DNA of 64,000 nt from Tilletia caries (Eukaryota; Basidiomycota; Exobasidiomycetes; Tilletiales; Tilletiaceae): the NCBI GenBank assembly GCA_032718865.1, contig JALUTQ010000040.1, forward strand, positions 868,001-932,000, given 5' to 3'. The translations under genes and the position numbers were made by a program. Positions 20,859-44,810 of the stretch are shown here, piece by piece. Numbering within the stretch: position 1 is the stretch's first letter; each line of letters begins with the position of its first letter. The notes below the pieces were generated by a model that did not search any database, was not told the DNA's origin, and saw nothing but the letters and a program-made list of their open reading frames with translations.

Positions 20859-23800
20859 ATGCCACCCTTACAACGTTTGCATCGTGACTGTCAGGCACCC
20901 CCTCACTCATCTCCTCCGTTCTTTCCCAACTTATTACCTCACTCATCGTCTCCAGTCCAACCTACACCTTCTCCACCACCCACAGTCACAGGGGTAAAGC
21001 CAGTTCGCTCCATCCAGCTCAACTGTGCCAAAAGGCGAACCGCCTTCCACTCGCTGTTCAACACCGCCCCCTCAGACCGCTTCGACATGATCTTCCTACA
21101 GGAGCCCTATGTCATCACACAAACATCCCAACCACCCTACTACGCAGGATGGCGTCCGATCTCTCCCATCTTCGATGCGCCTCCGGCTCAGGACACTCCT
21201 GTGGGCCCCAGAGCCATCTCATACATCTCTGCCACTCGGTTCTCCCCAAATTCAATCACTCCCCTCGCCACGAACTCCTACGATGTCAGCGCGTTCGTCG
21301 TCGCGGAAGGCGCTGGTCTTCCAGCACGAGCCTTCATAAACATATATAACCAAAAAGACAATATCGGTACACTCGAAGCGGTCGATTCCCTTCTGGACCG
21401 TATCTTCACGCGTCATAACAACCCCGCAATTTTTCTCTTGGGCGATTTCAATCTCCACCATGAGCTCTGGAATCCTCACGACTACCTCTCATCAGACCCG
21501 CGAGCCGAAACTCTTCTCGACATCGCGGGCAAGCACGGGCTCGAACTCCGGTCGGAGGAGGGAGTCCCCACCTTCCAACATATCAGTGGCCAATCACGGG
21601 CCACTACCATCAATCTTGTGTGGGCGAATCGCCTTGGCGCCGACCTGATGTTCTCCTGCCGCACCGACGTGGACGGTTCTTTCAGCCAGCTCTCCGACCA
21701 CCGCGCGTTGGTGCACGAAACTCTCAGCCAGCACGAGGTCCGTTCGCCTATCCGATCGCCGTACCAGTGGGACAAGGTGGACTGGACCAAGCTCACAATC
21801 AACCTCGAGGCCTCCTTCCCCTTGTCCCAGACCCCTCCAACCATTCTCTTCCCCACCGAGCGCAGCGGGAGCTACTTGATGCATCAGCCCAGGGACTAGT
21901 TGACACACTACAAGCCGTGGTCAAGAAGATGGTCCCCGTCGCCGAGGTAGGACCGCGGTCCAAGCGTTGGTGGAACAGCAGCCTCAGCGCGCTGAGAGCT
22001 ACGTGCGCAAAGACAGAGCGGGGAAAGCAGAGAGCAAACAGGAGGGGAGATGAGACGGTCAAAGCAACAGCAGCAGCAGCGTGGAGGAAGGCGCGTGCTG
22101 TGTACACCAACGCCATCAAGCACCATAAGGCACAGCACTGGGACGAGTTCCTGGAATCTGTGGACGACCGCACAATATGGACGGCTGCCAAGTATAAGAT
22201 GGCCGGTCAACAGTTCGATCGCTTCGTTCCACCCATCTCCTCACGCCCAGAGGATCAAGCTCAGGCCTTCCATAAGGCCTTCACACAAGCAAGCGCTCCC
22301 GCCAATCTCAGTGACACCAGAGCAGCCTCTTATCCCACACCTCTCCCTGACCTCGCCATCCGAACAGAACATTTGTCCGCAGCCCTGGAGCGGATGTCAC
22401 CTTCCAGAACGGCGGACCCGCACGGCGTAACCACACTGGTGCTAAAGAAGGTTTGGCATGTTATCCTTTCCTTGTTCAGCAACATTGTGGCGGCCGGCAT
22501 GCGCCTGGGACACTATCCTCCGGTCTTCAAGTCAGCACACACCCTCGTGCTACGCAAGCCTCGCCGCGGCGACTACTCATTACCATCATCTTGGAGGCCC
22601 ATCGATCTCATCAGCAGGCTCGGCTTGGTATGGGATTCAGCCCTCACAGCGAGATTGAGCTTCCTCGCGGAGACTCACCACCTCCTCCCAAACTCCCACT
22701 TTGGTGGTCGTCCCGCTCGTCTACTGCGGATGCGTTGGTGTGTATGGAAGAGAGGGTGTTCGACGAGTGGAGGAGAGGCAGAATGTGCGGGTTTTTGTCT
22801 TTTGACTCGAAAGCAGCATTTCCGAGCATGCGCCGCGACCGGCTGTGCCACAACCTACGCATGGCCGGGATACCAGCCAACGTCGTCGAACTCATCCGAT
22901 CGTGGCACAACAACCGGTGGGTCCGCTACATCATCAGCGAGTATCTATGCCAGGCCCTGCATAGACAAGATGGCTGCCCGCAAGGGTCTCCCTTGTCCCC
23001 GCTCCTCTCCCTCTTCTACAACGCACCGCTCCTCAACCGTATCGACGAGCTCGGCCCTGAATTTCACTCGACGGGCTACATCGACGATATCGGCGTGTTG
23101 GTGACGGGAAGGGACGAGGAGGAGGTACAAGAACGTCTCCAGATGGTAGCACCTCAGACGCGCTGGTGGCAGGATTCACATGGCACGTTGCTCGATCTCA
23201 CGAAGACACACTTCACCATCTTCTCCCGTTCCCTCTCAGACCCACCTCCACAGGATCTCCCATTCGATGGCGAACTGATCCCGTGGCAGCCTACAGTTGA
23301 GCTGCTGGGGGGGGGTCATTTTTGGATCATCAACTGCGTTTCCGGGAACAACGAGCGAGAACGGTACAACGCGCACAAGGAGCATGGCTGGCGATCACAT
23401 CCCTGGGCAATTCAGTCAAAGGGCTGGGCCTCAGCCACTTGTTGCGACTGTTTCGATGCATAGTAGTGCCAAGAATCGAGTACGGGGCGCTGGTATGGGA
23501 CCGCTTCGAATCAAACTCGACGACCGTCAAAAAGCTTCAAGCGATCCAAAACACTGCACTACGACGAGCACTAGGCGCCTTCCGGACCACCCCAGTAGAC
23601 GCTCTGCACTTTGACTCCAACCTCCCCCCCATCGGCGCCCACCTTGACATCCGAGTCTCAGAGCAGGCCGTGAAGCTTCTCACCGGCAGCTCCTCCAATC
23701 CAGCTGCAGTCGCCGCACGTAAAGCTCACAGGCGCCCCACCAAGCGATTTACTACCAACATGGCTCTCATATTTCGTCAACTCGCCGCAATCGGGGTCCC

Positions 23801-25680: not shown

Positions 25681-28537
25681 TCAGTTGGCTAGCCCACGCG
25701 CCTGCCGACTCTCGTGCGTCTCGTGGAAGCGCAACACAAAGTTGACAATCGTCCCCGCCAGCAATACCGCGCACAAAAAGCTGGGCCCAACCGCATCAAA
25801 GTACACATTCGAGCTCTCCTTCGCCCGGATCTTCCACGCCCGAATCATGTAGATCGTGCCCGAGTACGCGATGCAGAACAGCGCAATCACCGTGAAGATC
25901 GAGGCCGAGATCAGACCCGATTTGTCGCCCGGGGTGCTGAAGTTCAACAGACCGACGGCCAGCGCAGAGATGAACACGCTGAACTCGAGCCACTTCAGGA
26001 ACGTACGTTCGTTCGCGAAGTACACTTTGGGCTCCACCCGGACCGGGATCGAGATCTTCTTGCCCGGTGCCGAGTGGAACTCCGTCGTGTACGTCACACC
26101 CGCAGGCGGACCCATACCCGTCCCGCGAGGTTCCTCCTCATCACGACCGAGCAACGCATTCCGGATCCGACGCTCCTCCGCCGTCATCTCCTCCTCGTCA
26201 TCGTCGCCATCGGCAGTCCGGCCCGCGGCCGAGGACGAGGACGCAGACGAGGGTGCACCCGCATCGCGCGAGTACTTCGCCCGCCACAGTCGCTGGATTC
26301 CCTTCGGCGTCAACTTGGAGAAGTACGTCTTGTCAAACGCGGAACTCGTGCTGAGGATGTCCTCCCGCTTAGGAGCCTTGTTCCGAGCCTGCCCCGATCC
26401 GCTCGCACCTCCTCCCGCTCCTCCACTTCCCGCAGCAGCAACCCCGCTCGTCCCAGCGACGCGGTTGAACGTGCTCGCATTGGCAAGCCGGTCAGCCGCC
26501 TCCGGGTTCTCCCGACGCAGACGCTCCATCTCGTCCTTGGACGCCTTCATGCTCTGTTCCCGCTGCGCCTTGAGTTCCTTCAGCTTGGGATCGTGCGAGG
26601 CCATCCCCAACGACTTGGCAAGCTGCGCGTCGTTCGCAATCGCAGCACGCCCGCGCTGATCGTCATCGTCGTCATCCCCGCCTTCAAACTCGTCCTCAGA
26701 GACCGGCTCGGCGTACGCGGTAGCCGCACTCAACCGACTGTTGTCCACTAGCGCAGGCGTCTCCGGCCTCGATGCCGGCTCGGAGCCAGGGGCCGACGAC
26801 GTGGGACGCTCGATGGCCAGGTTCCGAGTGACGGGCTTGCGGATGTCGATGTCCATCTGGGGCAGCCAGAAGGGCACCAAGTCGACCCGGTTCGCAAGCA
26901 GTGTGGCGCATCCGTGGATAAACTTGGAGAACTTGGGCACGGCCTCGACAAGGTGCGAGCCTACCAGCTCACGCACCCATTCCGGGGGTTCCTGGCCAAA
27001 CTGGGTCTGGAGCTTGACTTCGAGGACACCGTAGGGGAATCGCTCGATGTCCTCGGCGAGGAGCTGGTCGAAGGGATAGTCGATACCGATGTCCATCCGG
27101 CGCCAGTTATCACCGGCGCGCCGACGGCCGTCCCAGTTGTCTTCGCGAATCAGACTGAGTTCGGTGTCGAGGGAGATCCGGACGCGGGCATCGCCCGGCA
27201 GCTGGAAAGCAGTCCGGTTGTAGAAGGAGCGCATGACGGGTATGAGCTTGCGGGTGAGAACCGAGTACTGGACCTCGGATGCGAGCTGGATCATGCTGTC
27301 GACCTCCTTGTCTGACTTCTTGCCCTTCTTGCGGATGGCCTCGAAGGTCTCGTCCATGCGGTAGGAGCCGTTCATGAAGCCGTTGAGGTTCTCTTCCTTG
27401 ATGGGGAACCGGGCCTTTACAGATTTCTCGCCGGTCCAGTCTTCGCGATGGGTCTTGCGCTCGACGAAGATCTGCTTGGTGTCCATGCCGCCGTACCAGC
27501 GCATCCGGATGGCCTCTGCGCCCTCGGTCTTCTCCAAACGGCCAAGGTAGAGCTCGAGATCCTCGTTGTCGTAGTAGATCGAGGTGATCGCGCTATCCTC
27601 GACTTGGTAGTCCTTGTCCGGGTTGAAGACGAGGACGGGGAGGTGCTTGAGGATGACGAGCTTGAGGGGCACGATGTTGTCTGGGTGGACCCAGTACTTG
27701 GTCGTCTGACGGACAAAGGCGGACTGGGAACCACCGGCGGCCGAGTCTCCCTGGATGGGGTTTCCGCGGGTGCGGACGAGGTCGAAGAGCTTGGAGAGCT
27801 TGACGATGAGGGCATCGTAGTTCTCCTTGTAGAAGGGCCGGGCAGCGAGGTAGTGCTGGACGAACTCTTTGCGAAGAAGACGTCCGGTCTGCTTGTCGTG
27901 CTTCTTGACGATCTTGTGGAAGCCGGTGTAGTTCAGCTTGGTGAAGAGAGCGAGGTCGTGTACGTCTGCGATGATGATGGCAAGACGCTCCTCGAGCTCG
28001 ATGAAGTGTTCTTCGATGGCGTCGGAGTCTTCGCCGTCGGAATCGAACTCGTCATCGGATCCAACGTCGTCGTGCGCGTATACGACGTCGCGGTTGGAGT
28101 GGTGATGAGAAGAGGATGACCCGTGCTCGGGGGCGGCGCCTGTTGCTGAGTTAGCTGAGGATGGTAAGGACGCGTTTGACGATGGCCGACTGGAGACGAG
28201 GAGGTAGACCTCTGCCTGTGCCTTCTTGATGCGGCTCTCGAGCTCGGCGACCTTCTCCTTCTGGAAGGCGTATACCTTCTCGAGTTCCTTGCTGAGCTCC
28301 TGGAGGAACTCGTCCTCGTCCTTGTCTGACCATGCGGAGCGCTCGGTGCGGCCCTTGATGAACTTCTTGAGCTCCGAGTAGCGGATCTGAGGGAGGGCGA
28401 GGAATAACACATACGTTGGTAAGCTGTGTGCTTTACCATTTACCACACCGCTGGGGGAACAAGGAAGATGATGAACTCACATACTTATCGGACCACTCGG
28501 AGTAGAGGCTGGTCTTGATCGTCTGTCCGAACTTCAT
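25681..28537 (-). CDS. VTC4: Vacuolar transporter chaperone 4, polyphosphate polymerase
   Basis: Polymerises ATP gamma-phosphate into polyphosphate and feeds it into the vacuole as the catalytic subunit of the VTC complex. Two exons, 28481..28537 (MKFGQTIKTSLYSEWSDKY) and 25681..28386, intron 94 nt, 920 residues. Domains: N-terminal SPX (IRYSELKKFIKGR, then LNYTGFHKIVKKHDKQTG), with a Ser- and Asp/Glu-rich insertion between its halves. The triphosphate-tunnel catalytic domain follows (TSIYYDNEDLELYLGRLEK, IRMRWYGG, IFVERKTHREDWTGEKSVK) and retains the basic R-x-R and K residues that make it VTC4 rather than the inactive VTC2/3. A disordered linker precedes three C-terminal membrane helices (VYFANERTFLKWLEFSVFIS and following). 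It is longer than the roughly 720-residue yeast protein, mainly through the linkers. The 19-residue first exon is supported by the canonical MKFG start. Confidence 0.93.
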
Positions 28538-37006: not shown

Positions 37007-40000
37007 ATGATGCACTTTTGTAGATCTATTTCTTCTTAATGCGAAGCCGGTTCCAGATGCACAGAAAATGCTTGATGAGCAGAACTGCATGCTCTTGACC
37101 AGAATACGAGACGGACTTCTTGATGCGGCTCAAAGCAGAGTTTCCGCACTCAGCTGCAGAGCTATTGAGGTGTCGTAGGGAAGGATCCGTGGCCATGTAC
37201 GAAGAGAGGAAGCTGGACAGTGTGCACTTTGAATGGCCGTGCTGGTGCATCTGGTCGATGACGAAGAGGGTGTCCTTAAAGAACTCTGCCTCCCTTCGCA
37301 AGCAGTAAGGGGCAAGTTGGCAAGCAAAGTCGTAGACCACGACCTGCGGGGCAGTGGTCCAGTGCGAGAACAGGGCGGAGAAGACGTCGTTCCGTCCTTC
37401 GGACTCGGGAATGATGTGGAAGCCCACGCAGACGGTATGAGGGCACCATAAGGCCATGATGCCGCCCGTACGTCGCTGCTTGACGTACGCATCGTAGAAT
37501 TTGCGGCAGCCCTCATCACCAGCGACACTGCTGTCTCGATTCTTCGCTGTGTCCACTCCGGTGTAGTACGGACGCTGCCGAGACTTCAACGAGCCGTAAT
37601 ACGATCCAGTCTGAGTGTAGGGAATGCTGTAGTCTGAGAGGGCAAGAGGCATGGAAAATGGGGGGGTTCTGAATCAGCTTCAAGTATTCGCATCTATTTC
37701 AAGCCAGGTACTGACTTGATTCATTGGAAGACGAGAACGAACCAGCTGTAACAGCGCTACTCTGCTGTTGCAAAAGTACGTCCTGTTGGTGCTGGATGTA
37801 TTGCGCGCATGCCGAAAGGAAAGGGCGAAGGCTGGAAGGAAAAGGAACGATGCTGCTGAAGCTGGAGGTCTGCTGGAGATGGCTACGGAGAAGGAGGCCA
37901 AGTGCTGGGCAGTGACGGCTGAGGGTCGTGGACAAGTTGGAGAACCGCGGAGACGAGACGGACAGTTGGGAATCGGCAAGCTCCTTGAGCAGCGGAACGC
38001 AAAGAGGTCGACAGAACTGAAAGATGCCTTCCTCAGCTGCAAGCTGCTTCAAGAGATAGTCGTACGAGTCTTCAAGGCTAGGGTATAGACGAGTGTACGC
38101 AAACGTGTCGCGAAGGAGGGAGAGCAGTGAGGTCGTCCACGACTTGATAATGGTGCTGGTGGTGTTTGAAGAGGTGTTGATTGCAGAGTATTCTGTGAAT
38201 GCGTTGCGGAACGCAGCCAAGGCCTCACTTTGGTCTTCTGTAGGCAATGGCAGGGCGTCAACACATCGACGCAAATGGCCGCGCAGTGCCTTTGTGGGCA
38301 AAAAGGCAAGGATTGGCGAGGAACTTGGGCGCGCTGCAAACAAAGAAGACGGTGTTGTCGGAGGACAAAGATGTTCGTGGCGAAGCCGGGTACTGTGCGC
38401 CAAGACAACCCCATCTGCAATAACCGTCGACGGACTTGGACCGCAAACTGGACAGGAGAACGAGATGTCCATTGCTTGAAGCTGAACGAACGCAAAGAAG
38501 ATCTTGATGAAGGTGGATCGAGCCAGAAACTTTGGCGGACTGTGCTGCGATTGAGAATGCTCGTCGTAGGCGTTCTGGACCGTGGTGCAGAAAGCTGAGA
38601 GCGGGGTGGGCGAACTGTAAAGCTGAGACGAATACGAGTTGAGCAGCTCATGAGTCACAACTATTTCGTTGTTCCAATTGAAGAGTCCCAGTTCAGACAG
38701 ATCTGGACCAATCGTTCTGCATTCCCCTCGAGACCGGCACGTGCACTGCTGAGCCTCGATCACCGTTCGCAGCATGCCTTGGCTGTGGAATAGCCTGCAG
38801 GATCGAGTGGTCACTGTGACTGTCGCCCCTGCCACCGCACCGCAGTGACAGCGCGCGTGGGAGCCGAGCGGGAGAGGACTGGGCAGATCGGCAAGTCGAG
38901 GCGCTGCAACTCTCGCGAGATCGGTCTGAATGCGACAAAAGGCGGGGGGAGGGGATGGCCGATGCGAACAGGATCTTCTTTGCGCATGAGCCTGGATGTT
39001 GAGAACGGAAGACCTAATCTCGTCCAGGTCATCTTGATCTAGGCATGCGGAAGAGATTGAGGATGAAGGGAAATGAACAACAAAACGCAGAAGGGTCAGC
39101 AGCACATCCAGACACATGCCGCAAGGCGCAGTTTCGTATTCCAAAGCCAGGCGCGAGCTGCCAGAGAGAGATTAGCCTGCTATTTACCTGAAATGTCTCC
39201 GTCTTCTTCCAGGCCAAGAGTGTCCTGACGAAATTGGTGAGCACGGCGCCGGTGAACACATGCCGATGGTGACTGCGTTTCGAACGCATCCAAGAGCAGA
39301 GCAAAACCAGCTTTGAGATCCAGCGCTCGAGACAACGCACCGCTTTTGATCGTGTCGGCTGAGGCTAACCTCTCCTCCGTCTTCTCTTCTCGTTGACAGA
39401 ACTGAGTACCACGAACTCCGACCGTGCATGGCTGGGGCAAATGCAACGGCAAGAGGAGCCGCTGCAAACAGTTTGAAATGGAAGTGTGAGAAACTGAGCA
39501 GACACGAGTCACACGTGTACATTCCTAGCTGCTCTCATGGCCCATGGACTATCTTACCAGTGGCAGAAAGGGGCTCCATGCTGAGGAGTCGAGCAGATGT
39601 CGACCGCGCAACCTGCTGATGCAGACATTTCTCTCCGCTCCTTCCGTCCATACAGTCGCAGGACGACATCAACTCCAGATGGTCGTGTTCATCGAGGCTT
39701 TCAAACAAGGAAACGTGATGAAACGTCCCGAACTGTAAGCGTTGAGTGTAAAATAATGTCAGAATTCCAAAGTAAGGAAGAAGGCCTCCGAATCAAAACA
39801 CCAGCAACAGCAAGGCAGCAACCGTGCACCAGCTGTCTGCAGGGCTCTCACTCGCCTCTGCCCTTAAGAAATCCAAGTCCACTCACATCAGGAATCCCTT
39901 CCCTTGCTCCTTCCAAGATCCAGGTCGCAGTGTCGAGGCGGACGACCAAAGCTGCTTCCTCTTCGAATATCATGCGCGCGTAATCTTGCATTTCGGTTAT

Positions 40001-40016
40001 GACTTCATGTCCAGCT

Positions 40017-40374
40017 TGTTATGAACATTCTACCACTATACTAAAAGGTGAGACCAGTCTCAACCCAAGTGTCATGGATGATGCATATATCCAACACTCC
40101 CTCTCATCATCATGACCCTTTGGTCTGAGACGCGAGACCCCATAGGACTAGGGGCGAGACTCTTTCGGCCCGGAGTACCCGGAGCACGTGCTGTGGAAAA
40201 AAACCCGACAAGCACCCGACAAGAAAATGGTCGGAAAAGAAGTCTGGAGATACCGGGAATCGAACTCACGACAGAGTCGATCAGACTCTTAATCTGTTGT
40301 GAACATTCTACCACTATACTAAAAGGTGAGACCAGTCTCAACCCAAGTGTCATGGATGATGCATATATCCAACA
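40017..40374. mobile_element. Miniature LTR retrotransposon (TRIM-like) with 80-bp LTRs
   Basis: Two 80-bp direct repeats (40017-40096 and 40295-40374) differ at one base. Each begins TGTT and ends AACA, and the element is flanked by a perfect 5-bp duplication CAGCT (40012-40016 and 40375-40379). The 198-bp interior has no coding capacity. These are the defining features of terminal-repeat retrotransposons in miniature. The near-identity of the LTRs indicates a recent insertion. It sits inside exon 1 of the KDZ-like minus-strand gene. A tRNA-like sequence on the minus strand spans the junction of the right-hand LTR and the interior. Confidence 0.85.
40247..40329 (-). other. tRNA-like Pol III promoter spanning the LTR/internal junction
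   Basis: On the minus strand, TAGTATAGTGG (40311-40321) fits the A box and AGTTCGATTCC (40256-40266) fits the B box, 45 bases apart. Between them lies an anticodon-like stem-loop CAGATTAAGAGTCTG and a small hairpin CGAC-TCT-GTCG in the place of a class II variable arm, most like tRNA-Leu(AAG). The acceptor and T stems do not pair well, so it is not a functional tRNA. A T7 run lies downstream on the same strand (about 40205-40197). The A box is inside the LTR and the B box is in the interior. Confidence 0.55.
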
Positions 40375-41376
40375 CAGCTGCGTCTTGTGTGAAGGATCGA
40401 GAAAGAGGGAAGCCTCGTGCATCTGCGGAAGAGGAGGAGACGGGAACATTGGCGTCGACGTGGTCGTCGGGGGGGGGAGCTCCAAAGTCCATTCCGCAGT
40501 CATAGTCGTCCTCGAAACCGGGGAAATTGCTGGCAGGGTCGCCATCCGTTGAACCCGAAACTTGCGCGGTCAATTCCTGCCCAGCTGGCAGGCGACGACA
40601 TGAGGGTGCGTCTCGTTTCGGCCGTTTTGGCGCGGGACGAACAGAATTTGCGCGGCTTGATTTTGACCCTGTTCCGTCTGGCAAAGACGTCGCTGGGGAG
40701 GAAACAGAGGGCAGGGAGGGAAAAGTTCGAACTGTAGAAGGGACTGGTAGAGAGGGTGGGGAGAGCGTCGGGCGAGAAAAGGCAGGAAACGGACTGGAGG
40801 GCCGGGCGGCTGATCGTGAGAGGTTACCACGATCCCGCATTGCTGAATCTGTGTGGAAAAAGGGGGATACAGAAAGGGGTTGCCACAGTACAAAACCAAA
40901 GTGATGAACCTACCTACACAGGTAGTGACATTGGCGATACTCATGCTACGTACCAGAGGATTGATTCATTCTCAGACCGACCGATGTTGAGCTCCCGCGT
41001 CAGCTTGTAAGGGGACACCTGGTGGTCAGATGAAGGAAGAAAGGGACACCTGATGGTCCTTACTAGCCACGTCATGGCCTCATTTTTATTTCAGACGTGT
41101 CATGGTTTTCAGTGGTTTTTTAATGGCGGTCTATCCGGTATTCGAAGTGATTCGCTGCCTGACATGTGAGCAATTTGTGTTCGCAATGATGCATATAGGG
41201 ACCTTCAAGATTCAATTTAAGATCGAGGAAGTGCGTCAGAAAAACCGGGGGAAAGCCTGGCATCCTTGAGAGTTCCCGAGAAGAGACACGCACCACTTTG
41301 ACAGTCTGAACTGCACCAGCTTGCCCACCTTGAGTATCTTCCTTGCAAGTCCACAAGCTAAGCTCCGCGACACGAT

Positions 41377-43238: not shown

Positions 43239-44810
43239 TCATCGGCGCTGACTCTGCTCTTCCCTTTGCACACGACGCCTCTCTTGACTCAGAAGCTGTT
43301 GTCGTTTCTGCCTCCGGTCCGCCGCTGCCTGCTGCTCTGCCGTCCTCTCGTTGAATCGAGAACGGCTCGTCGTATCCTCGAACGTGTAGGAGTGGGCACG
43401 GTTCAAGGCTCTGTGGAGAGTCTCTCGGACCGTCTTCGCCTCCTCGATACGAGCATTCTTGCGGGCGTTGGCGGTCATTACGCGCTCCCTGTTTCGCTCC
43501 GCTGTTCGTCTCGTTCCCTCTTCTTCCGCTCGTCTAGCCCATGCCCTTCGTTGCTCCTGAGAGTCTGTATCGTCCATCTCCCACCAGATGTCCTCCTCAG
43601 CCAGCTCCTTTCCTAGTCCGTCCTCGATATAAATCTTGTACTTAGCTGCATCATCCCATCCCATAGCCAAGTTATGAAGACAAATGCAAGCCAAAATGCT
43701 GTCTTGAGTTCGAAGCTCTCCCTCCTCGGAGACTATGATCCCCCTCATGCCCTTCAGACACGCAAATCGTCCCTTTATGTAGCCCATTGAGTGCTCAGCC
43801 CGTACGCGAAGATGACTGAGCCAAAAGTTGAAGCGTCGAAGGTCTTTGGATTTTCGAATCTCTTGATGCCTGTAGGGAGCGACGATGTACGAATGGTAGG
43901 GGTAGCCCTTGTCGGCCCAAATCCATTCTCCTGGCTCCAGATAGTAGTATGGAGCCTGCGCGACCGCTGATTCTGCCCATGCGCTCTGGTCTCCGGTCGC
44001 CCCCCTTGGCCCAATGCAATATGAGATGATTCGCAAGGTGGTGGGCAGAGCGACGAGCTGGACGTTGAGACTGTTCCGATGTTTTCGATTGAAGAATCCT
44101 TCGCCGTGACCGAGTCCTGGCGCCCAAGCAAGGTTGACGTGCGTACCATCCACAGTCGCGAACCCGTCCCTCCATTCTGGCACTCCAGACCTCACTTCGA
44201 TCCAGTCCTTTGCCTGCTCCTTCTCCTCTTCGCTCGCCCAATCTACCAGATAGCTCTCCAATGCCACCATCCCCCTGATCACGGCCACTGTCCAGTTGTA
44301 CACCGAGCCCACACCACAACCAGCAATGGCAGCAATCTGCTCGGCAGATGCTGCTTGTCCGTCGTGCCCAAGACGAAACAAGGCAACCGAGAGCTTCTCC
44401 TCGACGGAGGCAGGGGCTCCTCTCCGGCTCTGGAATGCGGGTAGGGTTGGTAGTGCTGCTGCTGCCGCTTTGAAAGCACCGGGTTCCATTCGAACATGCG
44501 ACCGATATCGCAGCAGCTCCTTGTTTGACTCGTAGGCCTCCAGGCGATCGATGAGACGCTCTGACGGACGCCAGAGAGGGTTCCGCGGGACAAGATACCT
44601 TCCAGAAGCAACCGAAAGAGTGCGCTCGAGGATTCCCACTGCTTGCTGATAGCAATCGACCTGATCTTGATATGTCGTTGCCTCAGAAACGTCTCCATAT
44701 TGGCAAAGAAGCTCAGCGTCCGTGGCATCTTCAACGAGCTGAATTGCAAGCCCAACACCGCAGGCATAGAGAGAGTTGACGATGCGAGTGTGCTGCGTAC
44801 TTGATGGCAT
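43239..44810 (-). CDS. PIF/Harbinger DDE transposase
   Basis: Single exon of 523 residues with no stops or shifts. An N-terminal helical region is followed by a helix-turn-helix-like block (AEQIAAIAGCGVGSVYNWTV) and a DDE_Tnp_4-type catalytic core. The catalytic residues lie in FATVDGTHVNLAW (D), WIWADKGYPYHSY (D) and VRAEHSMGYIKGRF (E). ACICLHNLAMGW follows, as usual for the family. The C-terminus is a long charged helix rich in Arg, Glu and Gln. It would cut at the 41197/45050 ends together with the SANT-like partner. No disabling change is visible. Confidence 0.93.
   Translation of the reverse strand: MPSSTQHTRIVNSLYACGVGLAIQLVEDATDAELLCQYGDVSEATTYQDQVDCYQQAVGILERTLSVASGRYLVPRNPLWRPSERLIDRLEAYESNKELLRYRSHVRMEPGAFKAAAAALPTLPAFQSRRGAPASVEEKLSVALFRLGHDGQAASAEQIAAIAGCGVGSVYNWTVAVIRGMVALESYLVDWASEEEKEQAKDWIEVRSGVPEWRDGFATVDGTHVNLAWAPGLGHGEGFFNRKHRNSLNVQLVALPTTLRIISYCIGPRGATGDQSAWAESAVAQAPYYYLEPGEWIWADKGYPYHSYIVAPYRHQEIRKSKDLRRFNFWLSHLRVRAEHSMGYIKGRFACLKGMRGIIVSEEGELRTQDSILACICLHNLAMGWDDAAKYKIYIEDGLGKELAEEDIWWEMDDTDSQEQRRAWARRAEEEGTRRTAERNRERVMTANARKNARIEEAKTVRETLHRALNRAHSYTFEDTTSRSRFNERTAEQQAAADRRQKRQQLLSQERRRVQREEQSQRR

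What the first reader, a model, noticed from the sequence alone, without database searches (positions are those of the whole stretch)
40017..40374. Miniature LTR retrotransposon whose tRNA-like Pol III promoter is split across the LTR boundary
The 358-bp element has 80-bp LTRs that differ at one position and a perfect 5-bp target duplication. On the minus strand an A box lies in the LTR end and a B box lies just inside the internal domain, with an anticodon-like stem-loop and variable-arm-like hairpin between them. Plant Cassandra TRIMs carry 5S rRNA promoters inside the LTR; a tRNA-type promoter straddling the LTR/internal junction, where a primer-binding site is expected, is different. It could drive Pol III transcription that starts in the 5' LTR, making it a SINE/TRIM hybrid.
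Basis: partly seen in the sequence, partly recalled or inferred. Interest (0 to 1): 0.75.

Follow-up and report, generated by a model that had tools for sequence, protein, structure and literature searches.

The report
Mini-retrotransposon with tRNA-like promoter across LTR
A 358-base jumping element in a Tilletia smut fungus appears to borrow the machinery of larger copia elements, carries a tRNA-type promoter motif split across its terminal repeat and core, and has recombined with the larger elements; it is a new variant of a recently described kind.

Summary
At 40017-40374 lies a miniature LTR retrotransposon (TRIM): 80-bp LTRs with one mismatch and a 5-bp target duplication. The genome (Tilletia, T. 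controversa group) holds 154 LTR-core and 68 box-B matches. The element reads on the minus strand. Its primer site is the exact 14-nt complement of the anticodon arm of spliced tRNA-Lys(CTT), which explains the 'anticodon-like stem-loop'. Box A lies in the LTR, box B 28 nt inside; the pair is the best in the window. The stretch from box B on resembles the 3' end of a tRNA-Pro and is followed by TTTT. A copia family with an unrelated 607-bp LTR shares LTR tips, primer site and polypurine-tract joint, so it is the likely mobiliser; hybrids with TRIM LTRs around its gag-pol carry target duplications. Closest known: Helenus/TRIMp3 (Kojima 2024), where both boxes lie in the LTR; strict membership therefore fails. 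Pol III use is undecided: motifs favour it; dispersed copies sharing T7-T8 runs, and TRIM LTRs on 5.7-5.9-kb hybrids, speak against Pol III making the genomic RNA. New variant of a known kind.

The parts
40012..40016 (.). target site duplication, CAGCT
40017..40096 (-). 3' LTR of the element (80 bp, TGTTGG...TAACA)
40033..40043 (-). box A copy in the 3' LTR (no box B in the element follows it)
40097..40111 (-). polypurine tract GATGATGAGAGGGAG next to the 3' LTR
   Evidence: sequence; its end is shared with the autonomous copia
40097..40294 (-). internal domain, 198 bp, no gag or pol
40197..40203 (-). T7 run on the sense strand (T3-T8 among copies)
40224..40227 (-). T4 run
40235..40238 (-). 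first TTTT, 7 nt after the acceptor-like end; where tRNA genes have a Pol III terminator
   Evidence: tRNA-Pro gene L074 for comparison
40246..40272 (-). T-arm and acceptor 3' strand like tRNA-Pro(TGG), 22 of 27 identical
40256..40266 (-). box B AGTTCGATTCC
40281..40294 (-). primer-binding site GATTAAGAGTCTGA, complement of the spliced tRNA-Lys(CTT) anticodon arm
40295..40374 (-). 5' LTR of the element (80 bp)
40311..40321 (-). box A TAGTATAGTGG, in the end of the 5' LTR
   Evidence: unchanged in the 115 full-length LTRs compared
40361..40369 (-). GATATATGC, TATA-like stretch at the LTR start
   Evidence: inference from sequence
40375..40379 (.). target site duplication, CAGCT

Best explanation
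A copia-dependent TRIM of the Helenus-like (TRIMp3) kind. Its RNA is taken up by a resident Ty1/copia family (here 'A'), reverse transcribed from a 5' fragment of tRNA-Lys(CTT) ending at about C40, and integrated with 5-bp TSDs by A's integrase, which accepts the shared LTR tips (TGTTG...ACAACA). Shown: structure, TSDs, primer-site complementarity, cis signals shared with A, hybrid elements. Inferred: mobilisation in trans. The A/B-box module is most likely a tRNA-derived relic (tRNA-Pro-like 3' part) that makes an internal Pol III promoter only at the 5' LTR/core junction. I put about 0.35 on Pol III using it in cells, giving mainly a short RNA ending at the first T-runs, and take Pol II as the likelier maker of the genomic RNA. 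The first two rivals below differ only in this last point, so the confidences overlap.
For: 154 LTR-core and 68 box-B matches, reversed-pattern control 0. TSD at 16 of the 20 complete TRIM insertions or arrays with host flanks among the fetched loci (hand count). PBS complementary over 14 nt to spliced tRNA-Lys(CTT); its 4 genes carry an intron inside that stretch. Family A has RVT_2 and other copia domains, the same primer site, and a PPT/LTR joint sharing TGAGAGGGAGTGTTG with the TRIM. Hybrids with TSD: C9, C36, C39, C19, C7. At C7:587700 the joint is TRIM LTR + exactly the 14 primer-site bases + LTR of A. At C3 a TRIM strand ending at the first T-run is joined to T20 and antisense A, as expected if both RNAs were in one particle. 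Box A/B. tRNA similarity.
Against: No Rfam or ARAGORN tRNA hit; fold no better than shuffles. No sign of special conservation of the boxes: box A is invariant in 115 LTRs, but with 12 substituted sites in 80 that is expected about one time in six (by hand); box B has three variable sites in 68 cores, one of them at the free position. 4 of 20 insertions lack a TSD. Box A may be chance (5 of 300 shuffles, best match an organelle tRNA). Only one tRNA-Pro gene was found to compare with.
Confidence: 0.8

Rival explanations
1. Ordinary Pol II TRIM; the boxes are by-products. The anticodon-like part is only the primer site, box A a chance match, box B a tRNA-Pro scrap picked up by template switching.
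For: The same LTR is at both ends of 5.7-5.9-kb gag-pol hybrids with TSDs, hard to make with Pol III; T7-T8 runs are shared by near-identical copies at C35 (this one), C4:165592, C5:901987, C3:494847 and in the C27 array; TATA-like GATATATG at the LTR start; no special conservation of the boxes.
Against: The only A+B pair at this stringency in 64 kb has tRNA-like order, acceptor end and TTTT. Hybrids may have formed anew in the particle and need not have been transcribed as such. Two of the five T7-T8 places (C4, C5) lack a TSD, and T-runs can lengthen by slippage.
Confidence: 0.45
2. SINE/TRIM hybrid: Pol III makes the full-length RNA from the 5' LTR to the T-run in the 3' LTR (CACCTTTTAG), giving a short R region.
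For: Box A/B; 358 bp is within Pol III reach; T-runs 1 and 2 are only T4-T5, which fungal Pol III may read through (recalled).
Against: The third T-run is T7-T8 in copies that seem to have spread; the 5' LTR has the same TTTT just ahead of box A.
Confidence: 0.15
3. The TRIM is a deletion derivative of the hybrid gag-pol element through the 23-nt repeat TTCACAACAGATTAAGAGTCTGA, not its parent.
For: Hybrids hold that repeat (or a form with one to two changes) twice, at the 5' LTR/PBS and before the TRIM-type core.
Against: The second copy follows the LTR of family A, so the hybrid itself needs a TRIM-like parent with LTR, primer site, core and PPT in a row.
Confidence: 0.1

Closest known systems
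Helenus (TRIMp3), Kojima 2024, PMC10886601
   Same: Tiny TRIM, copia-linked in fungi, tRNA-derived boxes A and B, 5-bp TSD, primer site against the anticodon loop of a spliced tRNA, LTRs unlike those of the partner
   Different: There the tRNA-like sequence lies within the LTR; here box A is in the LTR and box B beyond the primer site. tRNA-Lys anticodon primer, not among the anticodon primers named there for fungi; Tilletiales host (Tilletia, Ustilag, Exobasid absent from the main text; its supplements not read); gag-pol hybrids with the TRIM's LTR
Cassandra TRIMs of plants, PMC7215508
   Same: TRIM with a Pol III promoter; long tandem arrays sharing LTRs
   Different: 5S rRNA promoter in the LTR; partner unknown; plants
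copia (Drosophila) and Ty5, anticodon-primed copia elements (as cited in PMC10886601)
   Same: Primer is an anticodon-side tRNA part
   Different: Autonomous; other tRNA (recalled)
tRNA-derived SINEs (recalled)
   Same: Box A/B module and short length
   Different: Here LTRs, PBS, PPT and TSD of an LTR element

Membership tests
TRIM | two short LTRs, short non-coding core, PBS and PPT | tested here: met
TRIM | dispersed copies with TSD | tested here: met
   TSD at 16 of 20 counted insertions
TRIM | mobilised in trans by an autonomous element | tested here: inconclusive
   shared PBS, PPT joint, LTR tips and hybrids; transposition itself not observed
Helenus / TRIMp3 | tRNA-derived sequence with boxes A and B inside the LTR | tested here: not met
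   box A in the LTR, box B 28 nt inside the core; no box B in the LTR at <=2 mismatches
Helenus / TRIMp3 | fungal type: 5-bp TSD, copia-like PBS against the anticodon loop of a spliced tRNA | tested here: met
Helenus / TRIMp3 | active Pol III promoter | not testable with these tools
   needs RNA data; also unproven for Helenus according to PMC10886601
Cassandra | 5S rRNA sequence in the LTR | tested here: not met
   no Rfam family at gathering score in the window, none at E<=10 in 40100-40400
functional tRNA gene | passes tRNA detectors | tested here: not met
Ty1/copia (family A, the partner) | copia-type pol | tested here: met
   RVT_2 E 6.8e-60, gag_pre-integrs, Pol_BBD, SH3-like domain

The most novel reading that the evidence does not exclude
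A Pol III-transcribed LTR element whose promoter exists only where the 5' LTR meets the core: box A comes from the LTR, box B from the core, with the primer site between them. The 3' LTR and solo LTRs would then be silent by design, each unit of a tandem array a gene, and reverse transcription itself would re-assemble the promoter. The same LTR, once exchanged onto gag-pol, would work as a Pol II LTR.
Probability: 0.25. Interest if true: 0.75.

Novelty: new variant of a known kind. Interest (0 to 1): 0.5.

Why it matters
Which polymerase makes the RNA of such TRIMs, and how they stay tied to their helpers, is open (said so in PMC10886601, discussion). Here likely helper and parasite sit in one genome with young copies, and the junctions look like records of tRNA priming, co-packaging and LTR exchange. 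A box-A/box-B pair split by the LTR boundary would give an LTR element a promoter that only its 5' end can have.

Tried and rejected
Rejected: functional tRNA gene; 5S or other known RNA; a well-structured RNA. An alga as host was my first guess from contig C18 with many tRNAs; one ORF there looks like a fungal mitochondrial nad2 (judged by eye), and a window protein is 100% identical to one of Tilletia controversa. Preference for tRNA genes: no LTR, core or family-A match at E<=1e-6 in 39 loci fetched by tRNA searches; 9 of them lie on C18, at least 3 are pattern hits without a tRNA called, and flanks are at most 1.5 kb. My first tRNA-Lys patterns missed the genes (intron; wrong gap); one search found them, among 17 hits against 36 for its control, the 4 exact ones being tRNA genes. 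A shorter box-B pattern gave 77 matches, control 4. Copies elsewhere: exact 38-base junction pattern, 0 in viral contigs and 0 in genome contigs; these hold viruses and prokaryotes, so this says little. One search gave one chance Rfam hit far below its cut-off. No 3' LTR of the C22 hybrid was found in C22:193000-194500. LTR haplotypes of 6 hybrids overlap those of plain A copies, which suggests several origins but rests on about 90 nt; a first try of that comparison failed by an offset error.

Full report
OBSERVATION. The element at 40017-40374 is real. Its 80-bp LTRs differ at one position; CAGCT is repeated at both sides. The window's genome, G000, has 38.1 Mb in 40 contigs. The LTR core (30 nt, up to 3 mismatches) occurs 154 times and the box-B stretch (30 nt) 68 times, with 0 for the reversed patterns. 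Only part of these was read: 121 LTR and 76 core features in fetched loci; 115 LTRs were full length with 15 distinct sequences, 68 cores with 41. The fetched loci were mostly the best matches, so they lean to young copies.

HOST. A window protein (25681-28446, VTC domain) is 100% identical over 98% to one of Tilletia controversa. Tilletia lies in Exobasidiomycetes. T. caries and T. laevis are very close, as I recall, so I name the group only.

ORIENTATION AND ANATOMY. The minus strand is sense: LTR TGTTGG...CAACA; primer site; core; GATGATGAGAGGGAG; LTR. Directly after the 5' LTR comes GATTAAGAGTCTGA, the complement of TCAGACTCTTAATC. The four tRNA-Lys(CTT) genes carry an intron after CTCTTA; splicing it out as ARAGORN places it in three of the four (it gives another length for L080) yields the full 14-nt match. 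So the primer would be the anticodon side of mature tRNA-Lys, as in copia-type priming. At C7:587700 the TRIM LTR is followed by exactly these 14 bases and then by the LTR of A, as if plus-strand synthesis had stopped at tRNA base 26, often a modified G (numbering and modification recalled). At C25 the same kind of joint holds 8 of the 14.

THE tRNA-LIKE MODULE. Box A (40321-40311) is a full match to the recalled consensus; box B (40266-40256), 28 nt inside the core, misses one of 10 set positions. They are the only such pair in the window, mean 0 in 6 shuffles; at looser limits the window does not exceed shuffles. The sequence from box B on matches tRNA-Pro(TGG) of contig C33 at 22 of 27 positions including the 7-nt acceptor strand (0 of 300 shuffles). 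The LTR end matches D-arm sequences with 5 of 300 shuffles reaching the score. TTTT follows the acceptor end by 7 nt. No matching 5' acceptor strand is seen by eye; no tRNA detector fires.

THE PARTNER. Of 28 matches to a primer-site pattern (control 3), 8 lie behind the 607-bp LTR of copia family A, two of them in composites with a TRIM; 11 behind the TRIM's LTR; 5 behind other LTRs; 4 were not fetched. A's pol holds RVT_2 and related domains; its closest long named relatives are from Tilletia indica and T. walkeri, 84 and 80%. A and the TRIM share the LTR tips, the primer site and TGAGAGGGAGTGTTG at the PPT/LTR joint; I saw little else in common.

HYBRIDS. The 11: ten read in sequence (at C4:1369755 a partial second LTR lies between), one (C3:2137063) inferred from spacing. 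Type 1: TRIM LTR, primer site and coding region of A, LTR of A, then TRIM core and TRIM LTR: C9 (5808 bp), C36 (5673) and C39 (5876), each with TSD, and in a C7 composite of 11,877 bp with TSD. C9 was read throughout in pieces; of C36, C39 and C7 only the ends and joints. Right-hand joints of the same type are at C4:304461 and C21:441519, left ends not sought. In C9 49 nt of the core including box B are missing. Type 2: C19, A between two TRIM LTRs, followed by a TRIM, TSD ACCCT. Type 3: C25, TRIM and A joined LTR to LTR with TSD AGCAC outside, so one end of the insert is a TRIM LTR and the other an LTR of A. Type 4: C3:494847-499999, TSD ATATC, where a TRIM strand ends at the first T-run, runs into T20 and continues as antisense A from inside its LTR back to just before the gag start; its middle was not read. 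This is what a poly(A) tail of A mRNA joined to a TRIM strand would leave. Type 5: C22, TRIM LTR before the leader of another copia family (L100 against L098). The shared stretches at the two joints (up to 23 nt, and 15 nt) make exchange by template switching or recombination likely (inference).

ARRAYS. C27:906708-912398 has 20 box-B matches in units sharing LTRs inside one TSD, GGCAT. C23:665150-667889 has 9 cores inside TSD GTCAC. Cassandra and one Helenus family make tandem arrays too (PMC7215508; PMC10886601).

TSD COUNT. Complete TRIM insertions or arrays with host flanks: 16 of 20 with a 5-bp TSD (hand count). The three copies of one duplicated segment at C4:1784271-1787543 count once, without TSD; the others without are C39:1762903, C4:165592, C5:901987. 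Dropped as truncated or compound: C27:542995, C4:1363383, C34:42469, and single-ended pieces. Composites: TSD at C3, C19, C7:1177456, C23:895217-895941 and C25; none at C7:587389, where the far LTR end is cut. Solo LTRs: 4 of 6 (the two without are in the C4:1782287-1788726 repeat).

POL III OR POL II. For Pol III: motif quality, order, acceptor end, TTTT. Against Pol III for the genomic RNA: T-runs of 4-5, 4-5 and 3-8, with T7 or T8 in near-identical copies at five places including this one, so the RNA intermediate presumably passed it; two of the five lack a TSD, and slippage could lengthen runs. The LTR also bounds the 5.7-5.9-kb hybrids. Against any strong claim: the family is too young for conservation to speak. 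One pointer to a Pol III-type 3' end is the C3 joint at the very first T-run, but a poly(A) tail annealing to that run explains it as well.

LITERATURE. Kojima 2024 (PMC10886601; seen: abstract and outline, most of the methods, results 3.1 to part of 3.7, discussion, legends and tables, find passages) names TRIMs with tRNA-derived LTR sequences Helenus and groups them with others as TRIMp3; most fungal ones have anticodon primer sites and copia-like PBS. In those parts I saw no box B outside the LTR and no Tilletia; the supplements were not read. PMC7215508: abstract and passages. Other papers: listings only. Searches for TRIM with tRNA, Cassandra with Pol III, Helenus, TRIMp3, Tilletia with retrotransposon terms, and LTR swap showed no report of this family in the rows listed; some searches listed only part of their hits, and the library lacks most subscription journals.

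Noticed in passing
C3:494847-499999 (L007, L122, L127, L131): Composite insertion with TSD ATATC joining a TRIM, copia sequence in antisense and a poly(T)20 joint: a likely fossil of TRIM and copia RNA in one particle.
   Followed up: partly
C25:563481-569983 (L107, L124, L129): One insertion with a TRIM LTR at one end and a 607-bp copia LTR at the other, with TSD AGCAC outside.
   Followed up: partly
L006 (both strands), L018, L109: Variant cores with an inverted repeat (11-bp arms, 3-nt spacer) ATCGAACTCAC-GAC-GTGAGTTCGAT over box B, probably a template-switch mutation, at 5 places.
   Followed up: no
C23:895217-895941 (L011): Two TRIMs in opposite orientation inside one TSD, CAGAC.
   Followed up: no
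window 37699-39144 (-): CxC4-like cysteine cluster domain, associated with KDZ transposases.
   Followed up: no
window 43239-44810 (-): DDE_Tnp_4 transposase-like ORF.
   Followed up: no
window 20859-21899 (+): Exo_endo_phos_2, endonuclease-reverse transcriptase type domain.
   Followed up: no
C4:1784271-1787543 (L030-L035): A host segment repeated with a TRIM in each of three repeats, same flanks each time.
   Followed up: no
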